Source of the DNA: Globomyces pollinis-pini
Lineage: Eukaryota; Chytridiomycota; Chytridiomycetes; Rhizophydiales; Globomycetaceae
Assembly (NCBI GenBank): GCA_025399215.1
Contig: MU621504.1
Span: forward strand, 1 to 13,095
DNA length: 13,095 nt
Direction: 5' to 3'
The translations under genes were made by a program, and so were the position numbers. The notes beneath the pieces are model-generated. The model searched no databases. It saw only the letters and a list, made by a program, of their open reading frames with translations, and was not told where the DNA came from. Of the stretch, positions 260 to 13,095 are shown piece by piece. Within the stretch, counting starts at the first letter, position 1; each line of letters opens with the position of its first letter.

Positions 260-510
260 TAGGGTTGGATCGAATCGAATATTCGATTCGATTCAGTTGA
301 GGTGTCGAATCTAATTCTAATACTAATATTAGTATTCGATTCGATTCGATTTTAAAATCGAGATGGTCGAATACTAATCTATTCTAATAGTTTCGAATCG
401 AATATTCGATTTGAATCCAATATTCGATTAGTCGAATATTCGATTTAATTAGTCTAATATTCGAATAAATTGATCGAATATTAGATCTAATTAGTCGAAT
501 ATTAGAAAGA
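260..510. mobile_element. Putative hAT terminus with palindromic subterminal repeats
   Basis: The stretch begins TAGGGTTGGATCGAATCGAA, which resembles the YAGRG-type ends of hAT transposons. It continues as roughly 250 nt built from TCGAAT/ATTCGA words on both strands. Perfect palindromes include 269-292 (24 nt), 319-336 (18 nt) and 346-361 (16 nt). hAT elements typically carry short subterminal repeats bound by their transposase, and the next recognisable coding remnant (630-823) is a hAT transposase C-terminus pointing towards this end, so this would be the 3' end of that element. The candidate 8-bp target duplication on the left is ATACAGGT (252-259). I found no matching right terminus in the window, so the element is probably truncated. 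It could instead be an unrelated AT-rich satellite. Confidence 0.55.
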
Positions 511-2146: not shown

Positions 2147-2205
2147 CATTTCAATTTCAAAATAACTTTATGAGTATAAACAGTCTTTATTTGATTAAAA
2201 CCTAC

Positions 2206-2394
2206 TTATTTGATTCTAAAATTATGTAACAAAACTATTGGTTTAAGAATAGCTAAACATTTACGATTGTTTAATGGTAAAGGCGATTTTAGACGACCAA
2301 ATGTTCTTTGAATAGTACCCATGCCCCATTCTGCAGCTTGACATAACTGCTTTATAAAACTTTTGACTTTCACAATCGACAAGTAGAAACGTTT
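2206..2394 (-). pseudogene. PIF/Harbinger transposase C-terminus (fragment)
   Basis: The minus-strand frame contains QAAEWGMGTIQRTFGRLKSP and then LLHNFRIK before a TAA at 2206-2208. The AEWGMR-x-x-Q-x-x-F-x-R-L-K block followed by a (L)LHN motif is characteristic of the C-terminal end of DDE_4/Harbinger transposases; the final acidic catalytic residue lies just upstream in intact copies. The rest of the transposase is not recognisable above about 2400, where LTR-like and copia sequences follow, so the element was probably cut by that later insertion or by deletion. It faces the Myb-like ORF at 1464-2146, the convergent arrangement seen in many two-gene Harbinger elements. Confidence 0.78.
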
Positions 2395-2482
2395 TAGTAA
2401 ATGTCATATTGCTAAAGCATTATTTTAACAATATCGGCAAAATATTGTGAAACACTGTATTATATTCAACGCTACAGTTTTA

Positions 2483-2563
2483 GTTATGAATATTTTTAAG
2501 TTAAAAGAGAAATCTATTCTATATTATATGTGTCATGAAGACATGTCAACAATATGACTCACT
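2483..2563 (-). repeat. LTR-like repeat, copy 1 (minus)
   Basis: Read on the minus strand from 2563, this segment (GTGAGT...TGTTGACATGTC...ATAATATAGAATAGATTT...) aligns with plus-strand 5040-5116 over about 80 nt with a few substitutions and small gaps. It lies roughly 50 nt beyond the stop of the copia remnant (2617), where the 3' LTR is expected. An LTR start at TGTT is plausible. The two copies are in opposite orientation, so they cannot be the paired LTRs of one undisturbed element. Confidence 0.6.
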
Positions 2564-2616
2564 ATCATCAGAAACATCCTTTGTTGGAAGATGTGAGTTG
2601 TTTCAAAGACAAATAT

Positions 2617-3840
2617 TTAACCCAATAATAGTCGATGTTTGATAAATGCTAGGAATGGTAACGCCTTTGTGAACAAATCTGCTATCCTTCCTCTTCCAAT
2701 TTGATATCCGAGATGTTCATAACATAACCTCTATAAAATGATGCCGGATATCAATGTGCTAGACAGCCGGATGAGCCTTTAAACTTAACAGTTTTTGTCG
2801 CTTTCAACGATTGAAGTAGGATTGTTGAGGAAATCCTATTTCTGATAGAATTGTAAGAAGCCAATATTCAGCTTCAGTGAAAGAAAGAGGATCCTTGAAG
2901 TCTTTGTGTTTCTTCTAGCCAGCTGAAATATTTATGTAAGCTTCTTCGTTTAAGTTGGCTGTAATAACATCAACACAATCAATTTTATAATCCATCCTAA
3001 CCATTTGCATCATATGTAACAATTGTAGCATATACGTCAATGTAATAATAGCGGTTCAATACTTTCAGTGTTTGATACAACCGACTGAAGTTCTTTTGAC
3101 TCAATAATAGATTCAACCTGATGAGAGTCTGTTTCACCCGAAGATGAACCACTGTCTGGAATATCTCCTTACTCTGAAGTGGATGTTCTAGTAGAAGAGG
3201 GAACCTTTAACAGTATATGGTTGACTCAGTGATGTAGGCAATAAAAGTTCCATTTGCTTTTCGATCTTTATAGGTAAAGTTTCAATACAGGATGATTCAG
3301 AAATAATTGTTTCTTTTCCAGTTTCAGGGTTATACATTTTCCAACTGAAAGAATTCTTCACAGAACCAACAAAGATCATTCTCTCATACAGTACGATTTT
3401 GGTCGTGTTGCACGACTGTTTCCTTGAGGTGTATATGGCAATAGTGTTTTGTTTTGCCATTAAAGTATTTGTTTCCACCCTCTTGACCCATAAAATTCAA
3501 TATCCAATTTTGATCGTAATAAATAGATTGTCATAAATATTGTTGTGTCATCCATAATAAAGCAAACATTGTAAAATCTCCAACAACTGTTTCAATTCCA
3601 ACATAACACACATCTGTATGAGTCACTTCGCCAAACCATTTGGCATGACTTTATTCATTCCAATGTGTCTGCGATGCGATGAGGGTGTTCATCCTTTTAG
3701 ATGATCTTTGAGTATCATCTATATCTGAATACATTGCTGTCTTGTTCTTTAGCGGCATTCTTAATAAATCTTGCTGAGTTTTGTGTCCCTTTTATCCACA
3801 ATCAGAACAGGTAGAGTATTTAAAAGGAGTCAATATGTTA
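2617..3840 (-). pseudogene. Ty1/copia retrotransposon remnant, internally collapsed
   Basis: Recognisable pieces occur in copia order on the minus strand. First is a gag zinc knuckle-like CSDCG-stop-KGHK (about 3790-3815), whose last Cys is missing. Next is the integrase C-terminal motif MIFVG...KMYNPETGKETIIS (3188-3478), then a Ser/Asp/Glu-rich linker (about 3090-3185). The start of reverse transcriptase follows, with IDCVDVITANLNEEAY (compare D-V-K-T-A-F-L-N-G). It is joined almost directly to RNase H pieces: DPLSFTEAEY, HIDIRHHF and GRIADLFTKALP, ending in a stop at 2617-2619. Protease, the integrase core and most of RT including its catalytic YVDD region are absent, and several stops and frameshifts remain. 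The element is dead and probably old. Confidence 0.85.
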
Positions 3841-5039
3841 CTTGCGTAACTGAGGATGACAGATAAAACATATTTCTTTCTTTATTTATCTTCACATACA
3901 ACTGTTCCTGCTAGCCAGGTTCGTTGTTTCAGTTTCACAAAGTCAGCAAATGAGCTAGAGTCCACATTAACGGCAGATTTGATGATTTCTTCTTTTAGAA
4001 TATCTTGTACTTTGCCAAGAGTGGAGAGTTTTTCTGACATCATTCGGTGTCTTACCACAGCATCAACAACACCAATATTGCTATATATATCTTTTAAGTT
4101 ATTAAAAAGTTATTAAGTTGTAAAGTTTTCATTGAACTAAACTTTTTCAATAATTTCTTCGATCAGAGCCCGTTCCCACATTTTACTATTAACACTAAAC
4201 CGTAAAATAGTTCATGCAACTGATCGCCAGGGAATCAATTCTTAAACTATCTTCAAATGACAAAATAATTATCTGATTCACAATTATAATCATTTAAAAT
4301 ATGTTCTTGAAATTCCAAAACTTCAGAGCAGAGTTTCTCATAAATGTACATGAGCTCTACACTTTCCAAATCTTCAGCTGGATTGATTATTGTGCTACAT
4401 TAACACCTTTCCACCACCTACGAAAAACATTTGCTCTTATTTTATGCACTATATTGCTTAAATCAATCTAATCAGAAACATCTGATAGTGCTCTTGTCTG
4501 TGCTGTACTTTATAAGCTTCCAACCAAGTATGATATAACTTTCACTTTTTCTCTCAGAACAAAAAAATTCTTTATATAAAACGAGACAAACCTCAATTAA
4601 CTGCTAAATGGCGATTTTAAAAAAGGAGGAAAGTGAGTAGAGAAGCTTCAAGAGACACTCTAGCATTGACCTGCACATTGAAAGTCAAAAAGTGTGTTTT
4701 TATCAGTTTAAATATCCCTTCATTATTATCACCTAATCTGATAGCTATGTAATTTAGAAAACGATGTTCTTTGTCACCTCTTTGAGAACAGTAGATCAAT
4801 ACAATAGGGCACTTCTGCACTTGAAAGCAAAGAACTGTTCTTTTTGTTTCCGTCGACTTTATTAAGAGCTAATGAAGGATCTTATGTCATTCAAAGCTGT
4901 GGTGTTTGGATCTCTTTAGATGATTAACGTTTTTATCCCTCCATGATTTCTAGTTACGCAAATCGTTTATTCCAATCGATTTTTTATTTTATTTTAAACT
5001 TTAAAATTATCAAAACTAAATATTGATGTTGTTGTTACT
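3841..5039. other. Unresolved AT-rich stretch with broken minus-strand frames
   Basis: No intact gene can be supported. On the minus strand, moderately protein-like open pieces recur at 4617-4820 (with FLNYIAIRLGDNNEGIFKLI), about 4480-4590 (with LIEVCLVLYKEFFCSERKSE), about 4270-4380 (with DLESVELMYIYEKLCSEVLE), about 4140-4190 (with NSKMWERALIEEIIEK) and 3895-4095 (with VRHRMMSEKLSTLGKVQDI). They are separated by stops and I recognise none of them. They may be a decayed host gene whose small introns I could not place, the upstream part of the copia element, or chance. The region from about 4830 to 5039 shows nothing. Confidence 0.3.
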
Positions 5040-5116
5040 GTGAGTGATTCATCATTGTTTACGTGTCACTAAGACACGTAATATAGAATAGATTTTCTTA
5101 ACTTAATAAAAGATAA
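5040..5116 (+). repeat. LTR-like repeat, copy 2 (plus)
   Basis: This is the inverted counterpart of 2483-2563, sharing GTGAGT, a TGTT(T/G)AC(G/A)TGTC box and ATAATATAGAATAGATTTTC. It contains a perfect stem-loop at 5061-5079 (ACGTGTC, 5-nt loop, GACACGT); the other copy keeps this only partly. It may be the start of a solo LTR of the copia family inserted in the opposite orientation. It lies just beside the truncated end of the FAR1/MULE remnant. Confidence 0.6.
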
Positions 5117-5159
5117 CTTCTAAACTAAAAAGTGTAAACTAGTAGTTCATGTCCGTGAA

Positions 5160-5997
5160 ATATAATTAATTTCACTGTTGCAGGACAAACACATTAGTAT
5201 ACTTACTTGTCAGTTTGCAGATGTTTAATGAGAAAAAAATACATTAGTTGTAATATCGCCATCCAATTTAATACTATGAATGTAATCGCTAGTTGATATA
5301 TGATCAATCATAAGTCATAAGTTCTATTGGTTTTCGTCCATTTAAAAGTTCCAACTTTTTCTTCGCTGGCAGACTGTAAATTTCTTTTTCTGTAGTACAT
5401 TAATAATTGTTTTTAAATTCTTCAAATACACCAATATAATAAACTTAGGGGCGGTACCATTTCTACCCAGCTTGATAATTACTTCTGTTTCCTTTTCGTT
5501 CAGACGTCGTACTGCTGAATGTCCATATAAATCGGAGTTGATTTCATGATTGTTCACTTTCCTCACCCCCACTCTCCTTTCTTCGATGAACAAACAATTT
5601 CAAATGCACATCCGGTTACTTTGGATGAACTCTTTCTTCCAGGTTTACATTGACTATTGTAAACACCAACTTTATCACATCTTACTACCGCATAGCCCCC
5701 AGCTATTGTTTCCGTTTCCATGCCGCCTGTTTTCATCATTTTAAGTTGTTCATTTTGATGGCAAGCACCACCCCTCTCTCTAAATATTGTTTTTTCAACT
5801 CGTTTATTAATTAATCTCTTGTGTGGTACACCAATTCTGAATGCACACATAAAGTCAAATTCATCATCTAATCCTAAATCAAATATATTGTTTTTTACAA
5901 AGTAAAGTTGTTTGGTTTCGGACACTAATTCTGCTTTGTGACAAGGTGTCAAAATGGTTTTTTCCTTGATTTTATTCAGTTCAATCCTCCTTTTTAC
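5160..5997 (-). pseudogene. FAR1/MULE transposase N-terminal part (frameshifted, truncated)
   Basis: The minus-strand frame 5952-5563 carries a FAR1-type zinc-binding domain: GGYAVVRCDKVGVY, then YNSQCKPGRK, then TGCAFEIVCSSKKGEWG. A frame change at a C5 run (5566-5570 on the plus strand) leads into VRKVNNHEINSDLYGHSAVR and RLNEKETEVIIKLGRNG, the helix-rich segment that follows FAR1 domains in fungal Mutator-like transposases. A further degraded part with NGRKPIEL and KLDGDITTNVFFSH (to about 5160) matches the stretch just before the catalytic domain. The DDE domain itself is missing. The usual H-N-H ligand triplet reads N-N-H here, so one metal ligand appears lost. Downstream the remnant stops near the LTR-like repeat at 5040-5116. 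Confidence 0.8.
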
Positions 5998-6702
5998 TTT
6001 CTGATTTCCTCCTTTCCATAAATGTTTCCCTTATTGCTGCATCAAGTTCATAATAACAAATTGAACTTTGGAAATAGCTCTGTTCTGAGTGGTTTTCTCT
6101 TAGAGGTGTGTCTATAAGAGGTTAACCGAAAAATGCCCCTTTTATTGTCCAGACTACGGTAGCTTATCTTAAAGTATCCAATTGTTTCAGTCATCAGAAG
6201 CACAATTGACGCATTATGTTAGAGATTCCCTCCTTAGTTTTAGCTCATGATAGGAGCTCATCTTCAGCATATTCCAAACAATGGGTGACAAATCCAGAGA
6301 TTGAGGATGGCATTAATTTATTACTTTTTCGCGACCAGTGAAGACCACTTTAAACCTCGTCATTTCATCTAGCGAATAGGATTTTGAAACTATATTAAGT
6401 TAGTGTACAGTTCCATCAAATTCCACTAGCCGACACCAAGCAAAATAAGAGTAAGAAACCCAAAAGTATAACATTTAATAATACGTTTGAATAACTTTAT
6501 ACAATAGTTTCATCATCCCAACAGATAGATATAAAGCACTCATCCGCCTTGGAAAGGATTAAAATATTTCCACACTGGTTGACTTATAGTACATAGGTGG
6601 TATTGTATGTTTTTAGGAAAGTTTCCCATCTTGCCATATGATTTGTATAAAGTAATTGACCAATTGTTAGCTGATTGAGTTGAATTTCTTCCCTTTTCAC
6701 CA
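5998..6702. other. Intergenic stretch between the transposon remnants and the lipase gene
   Basis: I see no convincing gene. One short minus-strand piece near 6000-6065 reads LDAAIRETFMERRKSESKKE and then stops. The last 100 nt should hold the lipase promoter and 5' UTR. A possible further 26-nt GT...TTAG intron lies at about 6645-6670, which would allow an extra 5' exon for the lipase, but I could not find a frame that supports it. Confidence 0.3.
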
Positions 6703-8688
6703 ATGGTTTATAAGAACATTGTCAAAGTTTTTGCGTATATTGTTGAGCAATGGTTTGTAGTTAATGATTACTAATTTATATACAGGTTTATTTAATGGCT
6801 TCTAATAGCTTGATAGTTTGTCTGTGTTTATTGTTATTGCACAGTCTACTTATGAGTCAGTACATACACTATACACCAAAATAAGACCAATGGATCAAGA
6901 TATTTTATTGGAAAATAGACTGCAGTCTGCTCCAAACTACGAAAGTTGGTTGTCAATAGCTAAAGAGTTGGATCGAGTTCGGGGTAAAGTTACCGAAGTC
7001 TAATTTCAGAGTTGGATCAGTGGAGGAAACAGCCAGTGACTTCATTATTCGATCACAAATTGATAACATCCAGAATTAAAAGTTTGCGGGCAGCAAGAAA
7101 TGCAAACGATTTACCTACGATGAAGCTGTTAATTCGGTCAGGTATAATGTTGTTTTCATGAAGTAGGATTGTTAAGAAATTTGGGTGGAATTATGGATGT
7201 ACGATTATTTACTGTTTCTTATGTTGGAACCAAAAATCTTATAGAAGAGTACTTAGCAGAAGTCACAACTACAATCCAATACATTGCTGATTTGGACGCA
7301 GAAATGGAGTCACTACAGAGTCGATTAGAACTATTTACAGAAGTTGAACAAAGCTTCGGCCACACAGCACTGTTATTACATGGTGGTACTACTTTTGGTA
7401 TTTTTGGCTGGTTCCATTGATACTATAGGTTTGTATCATGTTGGGGTAGTGGAGGCCCTTTATAGGGCACGGTTGCTTCCAAAAGTTATTAGCGGCTCAT
7501 CGATTGGAGCACTGATTGCGGCTTTGATTTGTAATCTGGTGTCTCTAATTTTGAAATAGGTATTCATGATGAAAATGAGTTACCGGTATACCGAAATATC
7601 AACTAATTGGATGGTAGGGATTATTTGTTACCGGTGGAATTAATTTAGAAGCGTTTGCTACGAAAAAAGGTGGCAGTATACGTCGAAAAATTACCAGATT
7701 GTTGACTAATGGTACTAGTTATGTCTTTAACAATTCTGAAAAGGATATCTGTTGGATATTCAAGTGTTGGAAGAATGTGTTAAAGCAAATTTGGGCGATA
7801 TAACATTTGAAGAAGCTTACGCTAAAACCGGAATGATTTTAAATATCACTGTATCCTCTTCTAGAAAAAACGAAATACCAAGAGTAAGCATCTGGACCTA
7901 ATAGCAGGTCTTGAACCATTTAACTTCTCCTAATGTTCTTATTCGAAGTGCTGCTTGTGCTTCATCGTCCATGAAATTTTTGTATAACAGTGTTGACTTG
8001 TTGGCCAAAAATAGTTCTGGTCAGATTTTTGTGTGGTCTCCTTCATCCATAAAGTGGGGGAACTCTTATTCTGACAAGTATTCAATTCAATTTTAATAGT
8101 AGCGACTCCCCCGAGCAACGGTTAGCAGAGTTATTCAATGTCAATCATTTTATCTTGTCTCAAGCACAACCATATATTGCCCCATTTCTTTCCAAAAGCC
8201 CAAAATCAAATAGTGCAATGACTAACATTGTGCATAAAGCGTTAACGTTCACCAGCAGTGAAATTCGTTTCCGAATGACTCAAGTACAAATATTCTGTTT
8301 TAAACCTAATAGCTTGCGAGGCTGGGTTTAATTCCGCAAAGTTTAGGATCATTATTTGACTTGAAAATACATGGGCATGTTACCATTGCTCCACCACTCG
8401 ACTCTATGGTAATTGCAAGTGCTAATTACCTAGGATTTCTATACTATTTTCGGAAATCCTACATATGAATCTTTAGATTATTGGATTTTAAAAGGTCAGA
8501 GATCCACCTGGCCTTTTTTGGCCATGATTAAGAATAGAACTCTGATTGAAATGAAACTATATGAAGGTCTGGTTATGTTTTGCTAATTCTCAGTGAAATA
8601 TGCAATCTCTTGTGCATTGGAAAGGCGAAGAACAACCATTGCAGACCCACGTTCTATTTTGAAAAAAAGGACTCAGTCTATTGGCTAA
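6703..8688 (+). CDS. Patatin-type triacylglycerol lipase (Tgl3/4/5-SDP1 family), 14 exons
   Basis: Exons: 6703-6756, 6786-6815, 6845-6983, 7010-7141, 7167-7397, 7429-7530, 7560-7585, 7618-7711, 7744-7883, 7908-8077, 8103-8283, 8313-8408, 8434-8566, 8594-8688, giving 540 aa. Layout: a hydrophobic N-terminal segment (residues 5-27); DUF3336 (about 55-175, with NYESWLSIAKELD and LLRNLGGIMDVRLFTVSYVG); then the patatin domain with HGGTTFG (190-196), nucleophile motif GSSIG (Ser220), LEECVKANLGDITFEEAY, LNHLTSPNVLI and LAELFNVNHFILSQ. Such enzymes hydrolyse stored triacylglycerol at lipid droplets. The dyad aspartate, normally in W-(S/x)-D-G-S, aligns with Asn368 (WGNS), and the usual A-L-P-G after ACAS is SMKF, so activity is doubtful. 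The first two exons and the last junction are less certain than the rest. Confidence 0.92.
7884..7907 (+). other. 24-nt intron of the lipase gene
   Basis: It is bounded by GTAAGC and ATAGCAG, with CTAAT only a few bases before the acceptor. Removal joins NEIPR to VLNHLTSP, matching the family without gap or insertion. It is a multiple of three but contains in-frame TAA, so retention would stop translation. It is the shortest intron I can place with confidence. Confidence 0.85.
8078..8102 (+). other. Lipase intron with tandem acceptors (22 or 25 nt)
   Basis: The donor GTATTC follows the codons for KWGNSYSD. The 3' end reads TAGTAG, so splicing at 8099 or 8102 differs by one codon. The 25-nt choice preserves the usual family spacing between the W of the dyad-Asp motif and the RLxELFNVNH block. 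The junction lies beside the position of the catalytic aspartate. Confidence 0.6.
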
Positions 8689-8781
8689 TATACATGTTTT
8701 GTAAGATTTAAATGGTCTTTATCACCGGAATTCAGTCAAACTACTAATCTTGTAATGACTTTCCATAAAACTTTTCTAAAG

Positions 8782-8874
8782 TAACTGCATATATTTTGTT
8801 TCAATTAGCACAAATTTATTAAGTTGTTAAAGAACTACATAAATTTTGTGTTTAACCAGCACAAATTTATTAAG
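8782..8874. repeat. Tandem duplication in the convergent spacer
   Basis: Copies at 8782-8823 and 8832-8874 (period about 51 nt) share AGCACAAATTTATTAAG, respectively CAGCACAAATTTATTAAG, and a diverged upstream half (about 80% alike by eye). The duplication makes up much of the 187-nt spacer between the stop codons of the two host genes. Confidence 0.75.
8815..8871 (-). terminator. Two AATAAA polyadenylation signals for TRAPPC10
   Basis: On the minus strand AATAAA occurs at 8871-8866, only a few bases after the TRAPPC10 stop, and again at 8820-8815 in the second repeat copy. The first is so close to the stop that the second may be the working signal. No AATAAA follows the lipase stop on the plus strand before the TRAPPC10 coding region. 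Confidence 0.5.
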
Positions 8875-8875
8875 A

Positions 8876-11800
8876 TTACCTATTAGGTTCTTTAAAATAT
8901 CTTTTGCAAGACTCTTCCTTTGGCAAAATAACCAATCCAGATTGTACAATTGGCCCTTCAAAAAAAACTCCTTCAATACTGTCGTCCAAGACACGAAAAC
9001 GAATATTTGGTAGTGTAAAGGGCCCAGGACATAATGGCGTAATGTGTATCCTAAAATCTGTTGCTTGGGTTTTCTATTTGGTTTGAGTTCGTAAGTATTA
9101 CCGTCATCACAAATTTCTTTCTTGTTGGTCCACCAAGTATATATTTGGAGCGATTTTGGCTAATTTCAAAAAGAACAATAAGGTTTTGTTCATTTGCTAA
9201 CCAATTCTGAACCTTGATGCTCAAAGTGGTAGTCAACAAATCACCGACATGAGGACGTTCTACCTTGTCAATTACCCACTCTGCACGGAGTAATACCTTA
9301 GATTAGATTGTACAAAAAAACTTACACGACAAGGCTGATAGGATTTTTGATGTATCACCTTACGCATAGGTAAAGAGGATAGTGGCTGTGAAGCAATCAT
9401 GTCTTCAGTGATGCACATCAATTCCTGAAATGAACATAAAACTGGGATTACATTATTGAACTGTGCAATTGCATCTAAAAGCAGGCTCTTCTGTTCACTG
9501 GAAATTTGGAAAAAAGACTCAGATAGTATAACGCTATCAATAGCGGGAATTTGGATGGTTCCATAATAGCAAAGATCGGAAAAATCCACATTTCTGGCCA
9601 ACTTCAATAGCATTCTCTTAGTATGACCATATGCTTGCAATACGTTAAATTCTTTCAAAATGGCAATAAGCCTCTTTAGCAAATACTCTTCGATTTCTAA
9701 AGACTAAACAAACAAATAAAAATACCTATATGTAACGGCTGGTATTCAATTTCTATTGAGACATCTAAGCTGTCTGTTAATCGTGTTATGGATCAATAAT
9801 TATTTACCTTGAAATTGATCAGCAGGAATCTTTCCTACGACAATAGACTCTTGGTCTGAAAACAGTAGCTACAGTTTAAGTTCTTCGCACAGTTTACTAA
9901 ATTTGATTCGGGAAGTAAAGGGATCACAGTGACAGGTTTTAATTTAAACGAAGTTAATCGAACAGGATATGTAACTTGACTAACAAGGTGGTATCGTAAA
10001 TATGTGCTAAAGAGAATATGAGCATTACTCAATAAATTACAAATCAGAGCTATGAGAAACATGATCTACAATTGAAAAAGGATCTGAGAGTTGAAGTTGA
10101 ATCATGATTGGGTAAACAACTTTTTGACTTTCACTCAGATTATCAGTTAAGATGACCTTGATCTAAACATTAAAAAGAACTGCTCACACGTTGTTCTACG
10201 TTATCAGGATCTGTTGACTGATATGGCAGAGAAAATGTTAAAATCGAATAGGAAGTAAGTGGGGGTATTAAAATCTTCGAATCCTTTACGGTCAAATTTA
10301 AATCAGACCATTCTTCATCTAAAAATATTTAGTTTGGACACAGTACTTGTAAATAATCTGCCACTGATACTGTCTTGATATGTAAATGAGATAGCCGTCA
10401 AAGGAGTGATATCAATTGACCCACGTTGAATAGCAGAAGCTTTAGATTGAACTTCGAAGCACACTAATTTCTGTCCCACTGAACAATTAGAGTTCTAATT
10501 TAATTTCATACCCATTGGCGATTTATAACAAGTAACCGATAACGAGTCAAAAGATTCTTCGACATAAATTTTCAATGACTTTTGAATTTGCTGCTGAATA
10601 TCATACTTCAATTCCAGCTTTCCACAGGTAAACGAAATGGATGTTGGGATATAAACTCCATGGATAGCAACTTTCTGTTTCTTCAGTTTTAGTGGGACTC
10701 ACCTTTCCTTTCAAGACAATACTTTGGTTATTACCAGGGGTAATAAGCAATTCAGTTGCAGACAAATGCATATTCAATCCGTCTCCAGCGGTGAAAGTCA
10801 GCGCAACCTTGTCAAATTTGATTTCCTAGTGTAAAGTTTATTGGTAAGCCTTACCTTTGGAAATAAACTAATAACGTCTACTTGAGCTATTAAATCAACA
10901 CCATAAGCCAATTCATCTTTCACTGAAACATTCCTGACAGATAGAAGAGAAGAATTGAATTGAACAAAAGGTTCAAAATATCTATACGCAACCAAAACTA
11001 ATTGATCCATGTAAAATAATGGTGATTCCAATGTTAAATCGGAAGGATGAATTATTAAGTGCAAATAACTTTCCAGAAGATTTTCATCGATATGCAGTTG
11101 TCTTTGGCAGATTGCGTAACGCTCTATCAGCATCGAATCAATCTGATTCCAACCGGATCTCGAATACTGAAAACATATCTGTTTGAAAATATCTGAGGCC
11201 TTTTGATAATTTTGTCTCGCACTAAAGCGAAATGAGAATTAAACATTGTTACAAATATAAAAAAGCCAAATCCGCTTTTAGGAATGCCACTGTTGCTGGA
11301 CGCTTGCAGATTTCAAAAGATCGAAAGCATTTATTAGTTAAATCCTATGAAATAATTAATTGTTACATTGTATTATGATGATAGTTCGCCATTATTATAA
11401 AATTTATAAATTTATCATACCTCATAAATATGATCAAAAGACACCTTAGACTTCAATATATTCTGTAACGTTTCATTGGTAGTTTTAATCTCCAACTTTT
11501 CATGAGAAGTCATATCAGCATCTAACAAATCATCCACTGGGATACAATCCTCAGCATCACAATGCAATGAAGTTGGCATTAAATTACTTGACACACCCAA
11601 TTTATCCAGCTATAAAGTGTTAGAATAAGACGGATACTTGGTGACGAGCATGCTGGAATAGCTCACCTTTGAGAATTAAACCAATGTTGTACAACCTGTA
11701 TTATCACTATCAACTCGGAATAAGTGTACCTTTTAATCCTTCATACTCTAATACTGCAGCTGGAGGGTAGTTTGAAATGGCAAATAGCTCATCACAGTGC

Positions 11801-13095
11801 TTAATAACATTCAAAACAATTGAATATGTCCAGCTTTCGGTAAAAAACTTCGAAAGAGATTCCTTCTATGTTAATAATTTCACTTTATACTTTGTATTCT
11901 TGTAGAGTTTTAGAAAAAGAAGCCACAAAGACTTTTGTTCGGTGACAAATTTCAATTGGATGTGAGAGTAGGTTTAAAATTGTAGTCTGTCGGGCAAATA
12001 AATACATCCTAAAGTCAAATATTGTAATAGAGTTTTGAATGATTAATTCTTTGAATCGTTTTTGGTTTATAGTGAAAACATCTAGATGATCATCTCCTAT
12101 TTCTGTTCCACCGAATTTCTTGAACCATGGTGCTCCTTGTTCACTCAAAGTTTGGTAAAATAATGCCTCCAGCTCATCATACTCTATCAATGCCTCCTTG
12201 TACAGTCCCATCATTTCAAAAGTTCCAGATAGTGCTTCCTAAATTATTAGTTGGATTTATTTGTAGTGATAAAGTGTACGATGAAATGCGCTATCCACAT
12301 AGAACATTCAGAAATTCTAATTATCTACCTTTTGAATGAAATATTGGCAATAATTCCAACCAGGAATCAAACGTTGATGTTCCAATTTTCTTGAATCTTC
12401 TTCATATTGAATTAATTGTTCGGTAAATCCATTTATCAATATGTCCCTCAGTCGTATCATCAAATCATTCCAAATATCAATATTTAACTTGTCAGACAGC
12501 TTAATCTGAAAGAATCTGTCATTCCAATTAAACAAATATCATCTTACTTTTCCTTCTTCAGATTAAAATCCAATTTTAATTTCTCAGTAACGGTTGTATT
12601 TGATCCAAACAACCTCGATTTGATATTCAAATCATTTGAAATATGTACAATAATCCAGTCCTATCTGTCTAGTTGAATCAAATACATACTTGATTCTTCT
12701 TGTTTGCAACAATATTCAACCATTCTTGAATAAGTTTCTTTGAATTATTTTTATAAGTATCCAAATCGTCAGTAGAACAGAAGAATATATGACCAAAAAC
12801 GCAGTTGGTAATAATAGCCCCTGGTGTGAATGTTGGAAATAGATCTGGAGAGTATTTCAACAATTCTAAGTGCATTGTTGGAAGGCAATGTTTAGATTCT
12901 GTTCCTCGTGTAGGATTTACAACATCCAAGTTCTTTAAAGGTAATCGAGATGCAAAATGGTCTTGGATAGTTGGCCAGATTTGACCATCCTCATGATAGG
13001 AGATGATTGGTTTCATGTAAAAAATATTAGATTTGTGGAATTGTGATGGATCCTGGTGCGATATCAAGGCAATTGGTCCTGCACAATGGTATTGA
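8876..13095 (-). CDS. TRAPPC10/Trs130, TRAPPII complex subunit; 5' end beyond window
   Basis: Twenty-one exons (minus strand, high to low): 13095-12690, 12660-12548, 12515-12329, 12238-11891, 11865-11730, 11666-11638, 11609-11421, 11344-11253, 11221-10855, 10825-10703, 10674-10512, 10478-10347, 10318-10188, 10162-10041, 10006-9891, 9855-9808, 9773-9726, 9696-9452, 9424-9326, 9296-9102, 9073-8876. They give 1161 aa to the TAA at 8878-8876. Matches to TRAPPC10: KPIISYHEDGQIWPTIQ and SRLPLKNL (28-56), FEMMGLYKEALIEYDELEAL (242-261), RMYLFARQ, ELFQHARHQLDKLGV (398-412), ERYAICQRQL, then beta-rich C-terminal domains ending near LPNIRFRV and SGLVILP. TRAPPII acts in Golgi/endosomal trafficking as part of a Rab11/Ypt31 exchange factor. 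The length fits the family. The true start may be Met at 13016-13014 or lie outside. Exons 9891-10006 and 9808-9855 are the least certain. Confidence 0.95.
9425..9451 (-). other. 27-nt intron or nine in-frame codons (ambiguous)
   Basis: It is bounded by GTAATC and ATTTCAG on the minus strand and fits the size class of the other introns. It is also a multiple of three with no stop, so reading through adds nine residues (VIPVLCSFQ). Frame alone cannot decide. Confidence 0.5.
11667..11729 (-). other. 63-nt intron readable as two adjoining introns (34 + 29 nt)
   Basis: The TRAPPC10 frame demands removal of 11729-11667 to join EYEGLK to GELFQHARHQ. The interval splits exactly into GTACAC...TACAG (11729-11696) and GTTGTA...CTCAAAG (11695-11667), each with its own GT and AG and each in the local size class. 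Keeping the second half would give a stop within seven codons. Confidence 0.6.
12239..12328 (-). other. 90-nt intron of TRAPPC10 (longest)
   Basis: The donor is GTAGAT and the acceptor AATTTAG, with ACTAAT near the 3' end. It joins WNYCQYFIQK to EALSGTFEMM in phase 0, where the family is continuous. An in-frame TAG lies near its start. Together with the introns at 11345-11420 (76 nt) and 11667-11729 (63 nt), it is one of three that exceed 35 nt. Confidence 0.85.

What the first reader, a model, noticed from the sequence alone, without database searches (positions are those of the whole stretch)
6703..13095. Two host genes interrupted by 33 introns, 30 of them only 24-35 nt long
Seen: conserved protein blocks of a patatin lipase and of TRAPPC10 continue in frame only if short GT...AG segments are removed. 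By position the lengths are 29, 29, 26, 25, 31, 29, 32, 32, 24, 25, 29, 25, 27 (lipase) and 29, 32, 90, 25, 63, 28, 76, 31, 29, 28, 33, 28, 25, 34, 35, 34, 29, 27, 29, 28 (TRAPPC10). Known: fungal introns rarely fall below about 45 nt; such small spliceosomal introns are described mainly from some ciliates, nucleomorphs and microsporidia. Inference: this lineage has a spliceosome tuned to miniature introns, with high intron density, inside a transposon-rich genome.
Basis: partly seen in the sequence, partly recalled or inferred. Interest (0 to 1): 0.88.

Follow-up and report, generated by a model that had tools for sequence, protein, structure and literature searches.

The report
Miniature introns throughout a chytrid fungus
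Genes of this chytrid fungus are cut up by spliceosomal introns that are mostly only about 29 letters long, which is unusually short for a fungus, and the pattern holds well beyond the two genes where it was noticed.

Summary
The window is contig C409 of Globomyces pollinis-pini (Chytridiomycota, Rhizophydiales): both spliced products match deposited proteins of that species from a 13,095-base contig. Those proteins map back without a mismatch using 11 (lipase) and 20 (TRAPPC10) GT-AG introns; 28 of 31 are 24-37 nt, median 29.

In 240 kb from 24 contigs, a gene model with a flat length prior called 455 introns, median 29, 379 of 20-40 nt, about 3 per kb coding; reversed and shuffled sequence gave none of 20-40 nt. 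Kinase-profile matches, found without a splice model, imply 26-31 nt at 13 of 17 frame-changing junctions. A branch motif (YTRAY) peaks 18-21 nt from the donor even when introns are called from GT and AG alone. U2 snRNA is canonical.

Weak points: no RNA reads; the gene model recovers exactly 21 of 31 deposited introns and over-calls long ones. A spliceosome 'tuned' to tiny introns is inference. I rate it a new member of the known class of tiny-intron genomes, here in an intron-rich fungus.

The parts
6703..8688 (+). patatin-domain (DUF3336 + Patatin) lipase gene; deposited CDS starts at 6890
   Evidence: Pfam PF11815 and PF01734; deposited protein P0001 identical; upstream exon from 6703 resembles the N-terminus of Boothiomyces P0002
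   Evidence: gapless N-terminal alignment to P0002, 91 against 72; whole-protein scores favour it in 2 of 4 orthologues, 1 point against in 2; outside the deposited CDS
6984..7009 (+). 26-nt intron
   Evidence: deposited model; 4 of 7 orthologues gapless across the junction
7142..7166 (+). 25-nt intron
   Evidence: 7 of 7 gapless
7398..7428 (+). 31-nt intron
   Evidence: 7 of 7
7531..7559 (+). 29-nt intron
   Evidence: 7 of 7
7586..7617 (+). 32-nt intron
   Evidence: 7 of 7
7712..7743 (+). 32-nt intron
   Evidence: 7 of 7
7884..7907 (+). 24-nt intron (3n, with in-frame stop)
   Evidence: 7 of 7; my gene model nt here
8078..8102 (+). 25-nt intron
   Evidence: insertion-prone place, counted 0 of 7
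8284..8312 (+). 29-nt intron
   Evidence: 7 of 7
8409..8433 (+). 25-nt intron
   Evidence: 7 of 7
8567..8593 (+). 27-nt intron (3n, with in-frame stop)
   Evidence: 6 of 7; missed by the sample-trained gene model
8879..13016 (-). TRAPPC10/Trs130 gene (deposited CDS, 1132 aa); the open frame runs on to the window end
   Evidence: Pfam PF23036, PF24967, PF12584; deposited protein P0121 identical
12661..12689 (-). 29-nt intron
   Evidence: 8 of 8 gapless
12516..12547 (-). 32-nt intron
   Evidence: insertion-prone place, counted 0 of 8
12239..12328 (-). 90-nt intron
   Evidence: insertion-prone place, counted 0 of 8
11863..11890 (-). 28-nt intron (reader: 25)
   Evidence: (8 of 8)
11667..11729 (-). 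63-nt intron
   Evidence: (8 of 8)
11610..11637 (-). 28-nt intron
   Evidence: 8 of 8
11345..11420 (-). 76-nt intron
   Evidence: insertion-prone place, counted 0 of 8
11222..11252 (-). 31-nt intron
   Evidence: 8 of 8
10826..10854 (-). 29-nt intron
   Evidence: 7 of 8, low identity
10675..10702 (-). 28-nt intron
   Evidence: 8 of 8, low identity; missed by the sample-trained gene model
10479..10511 (-). 33-nt intron
   Evidence: counted 0 of 8; missed by the sample-trained gene model
10319..10346 (-). 28-nt intron
   Evidence: counted 0 of 8
10163..10187 (-). 25-nt intron; the deposited model uses 37 nt (10163-10199)
   Evidence: orthologue scores favour 25 nt in 5 of 5 comparisons
10007..10040 (-). 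34-nt intron
   Evidence: 8 of 8 gapless, low identity
9869..9897 (-). 29-nt intron (reader: 35)
   Evidence: (8 of 8)
9774..9807 (-). 34-nt intron
   Evidence: counted 0 of 8
9697..9725 (-). 29-nt intron
   Evidence: 7 of 8
9425..9451 (-). 27-nt intron, 3n and without in-frame stop; the weakest case
   Evidence: deposited model; 7 of 8 gapless; orthologue scores against retention are mixed
9297..9325 (-). 29-nt intron
   Evidence: counted 0 of 8
9074..9101 (-). 28-nt intron
   Evidence: counted 0 of 8

Best explanation
These are genuine U2-type spliceosomal introns reduced to near-minimal size across the genome of the chytrid Globomyces pollinis-pini.

Anatomy: exon AG, donor GTA[A/T] with little conservation beyond +4, a YTRAY branch site whose adenosine lies about 17-21 nt from the donor G, then a (T/C)AG acceptor 6-11 nt further on, giving a modal length of 28-29 nt.

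Most likely mechanism (inferred): recognition across the intron (intron definition), where the fixed donor-branch-acceptor spacing replaces long consensus sequences. U2 base-pairs with the branch site in the usual way and a nearby AG is taken.

Shown: the segments, their lengths in two deposited models, the length peak in the sample, the branch motif and its spacing, an ordinary U2 snRNA. Inferred: excision in vivo, the recognition mode, extension from a 1.3% sample to the whole genome, and that the modal size sits near a lower limit set by donor-branch spacing.
For: Deposited proteins reproduced exactly by removing 31 GT-AG introns, median 29. Orthologues are gapless across 16 of 31 junctions in every row aligned. 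240-kb sample: 379 of 455 introns 20-40 nt. Controls: reversed sequence 2 introns, none of 20-40 nt; one set of second-order Markov shuffles 0; spliced CDS of at least 600 nt re-decoded, 4 introns in 141 kb (2 of them 20-40 nt); an intron model seeded with random introns, with the already trained codon table, converges to 392 of 479. Pkinase profile junctions without a splice model: 13 of 17 frame changes imply 26-31 nt. Branch motif: in introns called from GT-AG alone, 100 of 168 hold YTRAY against a shuffled mean of 44.8 (maximum 57), donor-branch peak 18-21 nt; in the 28 short deposited introns 18 against 6.9 (none of 200 shuffles as many). U2 snRNA 135.4 bits with canonical branch-recognition stretch.
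Against: No transcript reads. The deposited models are predictions whose RNA support I could not inspect, and at one junction orthologues disagree with the deposited form. At 10 of 31 junctions the alignment has insertions, so conservation cannot be judged. The gene model, trained on the sample (its first round was seeded with the window's introns), recovers exactly 9 of 11 and 12 of 20 deposited introns and adds false or shifted ones, five of them 61-157 nt. With GT-AG alone the size peak is less pure: 168 of 308, or 75 of 126 at a stricter cost, are 20-40 nt. A first motif scan on 200 kb showed only a faint excess. U6 snRNA was not found.
Confidence: 0.94

Rival explanations
1. Decayed genes: the breaks are frameshifts and stops in pseudogenes and the GT-AG segments are chance ways round them.
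For: Stops and frame changes interrupt both genes in every frame read.
Against: Junctions restore orthologue-like protein; the same lengths and a positioned branch motif recur in the sampled stretches and in 28 short deposited introns; scrambled or reversed sequence gives none of that size.
Confidence: 0.02
2. Artefact of gene calling: my model and the deposited pipeline both prefer short GT-AG gaps, so lengths are biased downward.
For: The gene model has visible biases: it recovers 1 of 27 simulated length-3n stop-free introns and 21 of 31 deposited introns exactly.
Against: Flat length prior of 15-160 nt, and 15-500 nt, with the same median; its false calls on the window are mostly long, not short; 4 introns in 141 kb of spliced CDS; kinase profile junctions used no splice model and gave the same size.
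Confidence: 0.03
3. Short introns are general in Rhizophydiales or in chytrids, so Globomyces is unremarkable within its group.
For: Untested. Chytridiomycota are said to keep many ancestral introns (PMC8476143, section 14 read); relatives such as Boothiomyces, Terramyces and Kappamyces could share the trait.
Against: Untested: no relative's genomic DNA was available to me, and the passages I read give no chytrid intron length.
Confidence: 0.4

Closest known systems
Ultra-short introns of Paramecium (about 25 bp; PMC5014332, abstract and passages seen)
   Same: modal length in the twenties, many introns, spliceosomal
   Different: a fungus; some longer introns exist; a YTRAY branch signal is seen here; the hallmark of depleted 3n stop-free introns could not be tested with this method
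Mikrocytid introns, 16-17 nt (PMC10245619, abstract passage and others seen)
   Same: numerous tiny introns kept rather than lost
   Different: there a very narrow size range and conserved sequence in a reduced parasite genome; here 24-35 nt with weak consensus in an 18.5-Mb fungal assembly
Stentor coeruleus tiny introns (PMC9505925, passages seen)
   Same: tiny spliceosomal introns
   Different: introns in 18% of Stentor genes, and Prp18 and Slu7 listed as not found; here 90 of 112 predicted genes have introns and Prp18 is present
Short introns of Cryptococcus neoformans (mean 63 bp, PMC8476143; introns under 60 nt called ultrashort, with a 20-40 nt class, PMC11913375, passages)
   Same: intron-rich fungus; introns of 20-40 nt do occur there
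   Different: there they are a short class; here they are the bulk, at about half the Cryptococcus mean

Membership tests
U2-type spliceosomal introns | GT-AG ends | tested here: met
   31 of 31 deposited introns; 29 begin GTA, 27 end YAG. The mapping allowed GC-AG at a cost; none was used
U2-type spliceosomal introns | branch site with constrained position | tested here: met
   YTRAY enriched and positioned, with a null intron model too
U2-type spliceosomal introns | cognate snRNAs in the genome | tested here: inconclusive
   U2 found, 135.4 bits; U6 not found; U1, U4, U5 not searched
U2-type spliceosomal introns | excision shown by transcripts | not testable with these tools
   no RNA reads available
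tiny-intron genomes (Paramecium-like) | genome-wide modal intron length of about 30 nt or less | tested here: met
   on a sample of 1.3% of the assembly: 455 introns in 24 stretches, median 29, 379 of 20-40 nt; medians per stretch 25.5-35.5 nt
tiny-intron genomes (Paramecium-like) | depletion of length-3n introns without in-frame stop | tested here: inconclusive
   3 of 103 length-3n short introns are stop-free, but the method recovers only 1 of 27 simulated ones
DUF3336-patatin lipase | PF11815 and PF01734 domains | tested here: met
   E 1.9e-38 and 7.2e-19, over the cut-offs
TRAPPC10/Trs130 | TRAPPC10 N-terminal, NTS and C-terminal domains | tested here: met
   PF23036, PF24967, PF12584 over the cut-offs

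The most novel reading that the evidence does not exclude
An intron-rich fungal lineage, free-living as far as I recall, has collapsed most of its introns, perhaps some 29,000 (379 in 240 kb scaled to 18.5 Mb; the sample is from larger contigs, so this may be high), to about 29 nt. Donor-to-branch spacing of about 17-21 nt plus 6-11 nt to the acceptor may be close to the smallest that a standard fungal spliceosome accepts, with donor position +5 nearly unconserved. That would make it a fungal natural experiment on the lower size limit of splicing, without the genome reduction of parasites.
Probability: 0.45. Interest if true: 0.68.

Novelty: new member of a known kind. Interest (0 to 1): 0.52.

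Why it matters
Tiny introns are mostly discussed for ciliates, nucleomorphs and reduced parasites. An intron-rich fungus in which they are the rule, with a normal U2 snRNA and a readable branch site, offers a comparison for what sets the minimum intron size. It also bears on method: a survey of over 3,000 eukaryote genomes excluded introns under 30 bp in all species (PMC10639083, passage), a cut-off that would drop about half of the introns seen here (median 29). Gene models are easily wrong at this scale: orthologues disagree with the deposited TRAPPC10 model at one junction and suggest that the deposited lipase start is too far downstream.

Tried and rejected
Consensus-pattern histogram on 200 kb: too weak, since donors are degenerate; replaced by a gene model.

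Selection against 3n stop-free introns: the raw table looked dramatic (3 of 103), but the gene model recovers only 1 of 27 such simulated introns, against 39 of 42 edited introns that are not 3n. Claim dropped.

My 51-nt alternative for TRAPPC10 intron 5: rejected by orthologues.

18S identification: the Rfam search did not complete and a typed conserved stretch found nothing; the species came from the deposited proteins.

U6: the Rfam search scored 47 of 1792 candidates and rang in no control. One search used a pattern mis-spaced by one base, corrected; tried other parts. No convincing gene; three 2-mismatch matches look like chance (its reversed-pattern control gave 2). Not evidence of absence.

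Slu7: no match, but no control rang either.

Literature, ten searches: in the titles and abstract openings listed, none reports intron length for Globomyces or Rhizophydiales. Three listings were cut (20 of 198, 25 of 229, 20 of 91 papers). The genome paper cited by others (Amses et al. 2022) is not held, so priority cannot be judged. Passages in PMC5364385, PMC11649378, PMC7466969, PMC3234268 and PMC3569864 gave no chytrid intron length.
Full report
WHAT THE WINDOW IS. The held genome G000 has 18,547,825 bases in 459 contigs and the window is all of contig C409. The spliced lipase contains a deposited Globomyces pollinis-pini protein at 100% identity, from a 13,095-base contig (P0001); the TRAPPC10 product is 98% identical to another from a contig of that length (P0121). 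NCBI places the species in Chytridiomycota, Rhizophydiales. Papers attribute its genome to Amses et al. 2022 (passages in PMC13391722, and PMC11797018; that paper is not held).

THE TWO GENES. The plus-strand gene carries DUF3336 and Patatin; the minus-strand gene carries three TRAPPC10 domains. Mapping the deposited proteins back uses 11 and 20 GT-AG introns with no mismatched residue. Lengths are 26, 25, 31, 29, 32, 32, 24, 25, 29, 25, 27 and 29, 32, 90, 28, 63, 28, 76, 31, 29, 28, 33, 28, 37, 34, 29, 34, 29, 27, 29, 28: 28 of 31 are 24-37 nt, median 29.

CORRECTIONS. Five TRAPPC10 orthologues (P0122, P0123, P0125-P0127) were used to judge differing junctions. Retaining intron 18 (27 nt, in frame, no stop) lowers the score against 2 of 5 and raises it slightly against 3 of 5, so it is uncertain. 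Upstream of the deposited lipase start a first exon resembles the Boothiomyces N-terminus. Over the whole protein it scores better in 2 of 4 orthologues and one point worse in 2; against one of them (P0008) the deposited short form scores best.

JUNCTION CONSERVATION. I aligned 7 of the other 119 listed lipase relatives and 8 of the other 73 TRAPPC10 relatives. In 13-residue windows, 8 of 11 lipase junctions are gapless in all 7 (mean identities 0.43-0.81) and 8 of 20 TRAPPC10 junctions in all 8, some at low identity. My count is set to 0 where the Globomyces row itself has a gap, that is where at least one relative has an insertion; this happens at one lipase and nine TRAPPC10 junctions. For these the support is the open frame and the deposited model, though the Kappamyces row lines up at some of them.

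BEYOND THE WINDOW. I fetched 24 stretches of 10 kb, all from contigs C1-C170, and ran my own gene model with a flat intron-length prior of 15-160 nt. It called 112 genes, 151.9 kb of coding sequence and 455 introns: median 29, 379 of 20-40 nt, 358 of 24-35 nt; 90 of 112 genes have an intron. Medians per stretch are 25.5-35.5 nt. With a limit of 500 nt it, same median, 392 of 20-40 nt and 27 above 200 nt.

HOW GOOD THE MODEL IS. On the window, the sample-trained model recovers exactly 9 of 11 and 12 of 20 deposited introns. It was seeded in round one with the window's introns, so this is not a fully held-out test. The long tail is therefore probably inflated.

CONTROLS. Reversed sequence gave 2 introns, none of 20-40 nt; one set of second-order Markov shuffles gave none; re-decoding 141 kb of its own spliced coding sequence gave 4 introns, 2 of them 20-40 nt; starting from random introns, with the trained codon table, it converges to 392 of 479 at 20-40 nt. 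A separate test used no splice model: kinase-profile matches listed exon by exon. Of 37 neighbouring pairs among the 106 rows I entered, 17 change frame; 13 of these imply 26-31 nt, the others 43, 46, 68 and 392. The 20 same-frame pairs give 51-438 nt, which may be insertions in the protein or in-frame introns. The Prp18 gene, itself a splicing factor, breaks between its two profile matches by an implied 29 nt, and the model gives it introns of 118, 28 and 29 nt.

HOW THEY ARE BUILT. In the 379 short introns donor position +3 is A in 339, +5 and +6 carry about 0.05 bit each, exon position -1 is G in 212, and the acceptor is YAG in 351. These counts lean on the model's own site scores. So introns were called again with GT-AG and a constant cost only: 308 introns, 168 of them 20-40 nt (75 of 126 at a stricter cost). 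Of the 168, 100 hold YTRAY against a shuffled mean of 44.8 and maximum of 57, the adenosine mostly 18-21 nt from the donor and 6-10 nt from the end. The deposited short introns show the same (18 of 28 against 6.9). The U2 snRNA gene on C213 scores 135.4 bits with the usual branch-recognition stretch.

MECHANISM. The simplest account is ordinary U2-type splicing by intron definition, with spacing between donor, branch and acceptor doing much of the recognition. This is inference; nothing here shows an altered spliceosome, and few of its parts were looked for.

AGAINST THE LITERATURE. A survey of 644 fungal genomes cites a 63-bp mean in Cryptococcus as relatively short (PMC8476143, passages and section 14); the text I read names no fungus near 29. 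Cryptococcus does have introns in a 20-40 nt class (PMC11913375, passages). A Malassezia review mentions 'very short introns' without figures in the passage seen (PMC7426719). Ultra-short introns of about 25 bp are established for Paramecium (PMC5014332, passages) and 16-17 nt for mikrocytids (PMC10245619, passages). The intron positions of this species are implied by its deposited models, so the raw fact is in the public record even though my ten searches found no paper stating it. I therefore call it a new member of a known kind. That the species is free-living is my recollection, not a tool result.

Noticed in passing
window 2200-6200: Dispersed repeats: 55 matches in the genome (self included). 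A stretch at 5021-5125 is 100% identical (104-105 bases) at 4 places in 3 other contigs, and inverted arms lie at 2493-2563 and 5043-5109, as in a mobile element. No Pfam domain in the open frames scanned.
   Followed up: partly
window 395-503: AT-rich palindromic tandem repeats with units such as GAATCGAATATTCGATT.
   Followed up: no
window 8777-8874: A 51-base unit repeated about twice between the two convergent genes.
   Followed up: no
window 8040-8130: The lipase has no Asp-Gly motif (recalled as the second half of the patatin catalytic dyad) at the aligned place; 117 of the 120 proteins listed, itself included, also lack DG[GSA] there, so this is common in its relatives.
   Followed up: partly
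window 6703-6890 and 10163-10199: The two deposited gene models may be imperfect: the lipase may start further upstream (2 of 4 orthologues favour it clearly), and TRAPPC10 intron 13 is probably 25 rather than 37 nt (5 of 5).
   Followed up: yes
G000 as a whole: No U6 snRNA gene found by one Rfam search and three correctly spaced patterns, while U2 was found with the first pattern. Could be an assembly gap, an inserted intron or divergence.
   Followed up: partly
L031, minus strand, 577-1799 of the reverse complement: Prp18 gene, itself with introns of 118, 28 and 29 nt by the gene model; the Slu7 search was uninformative.
   Followed up: partly
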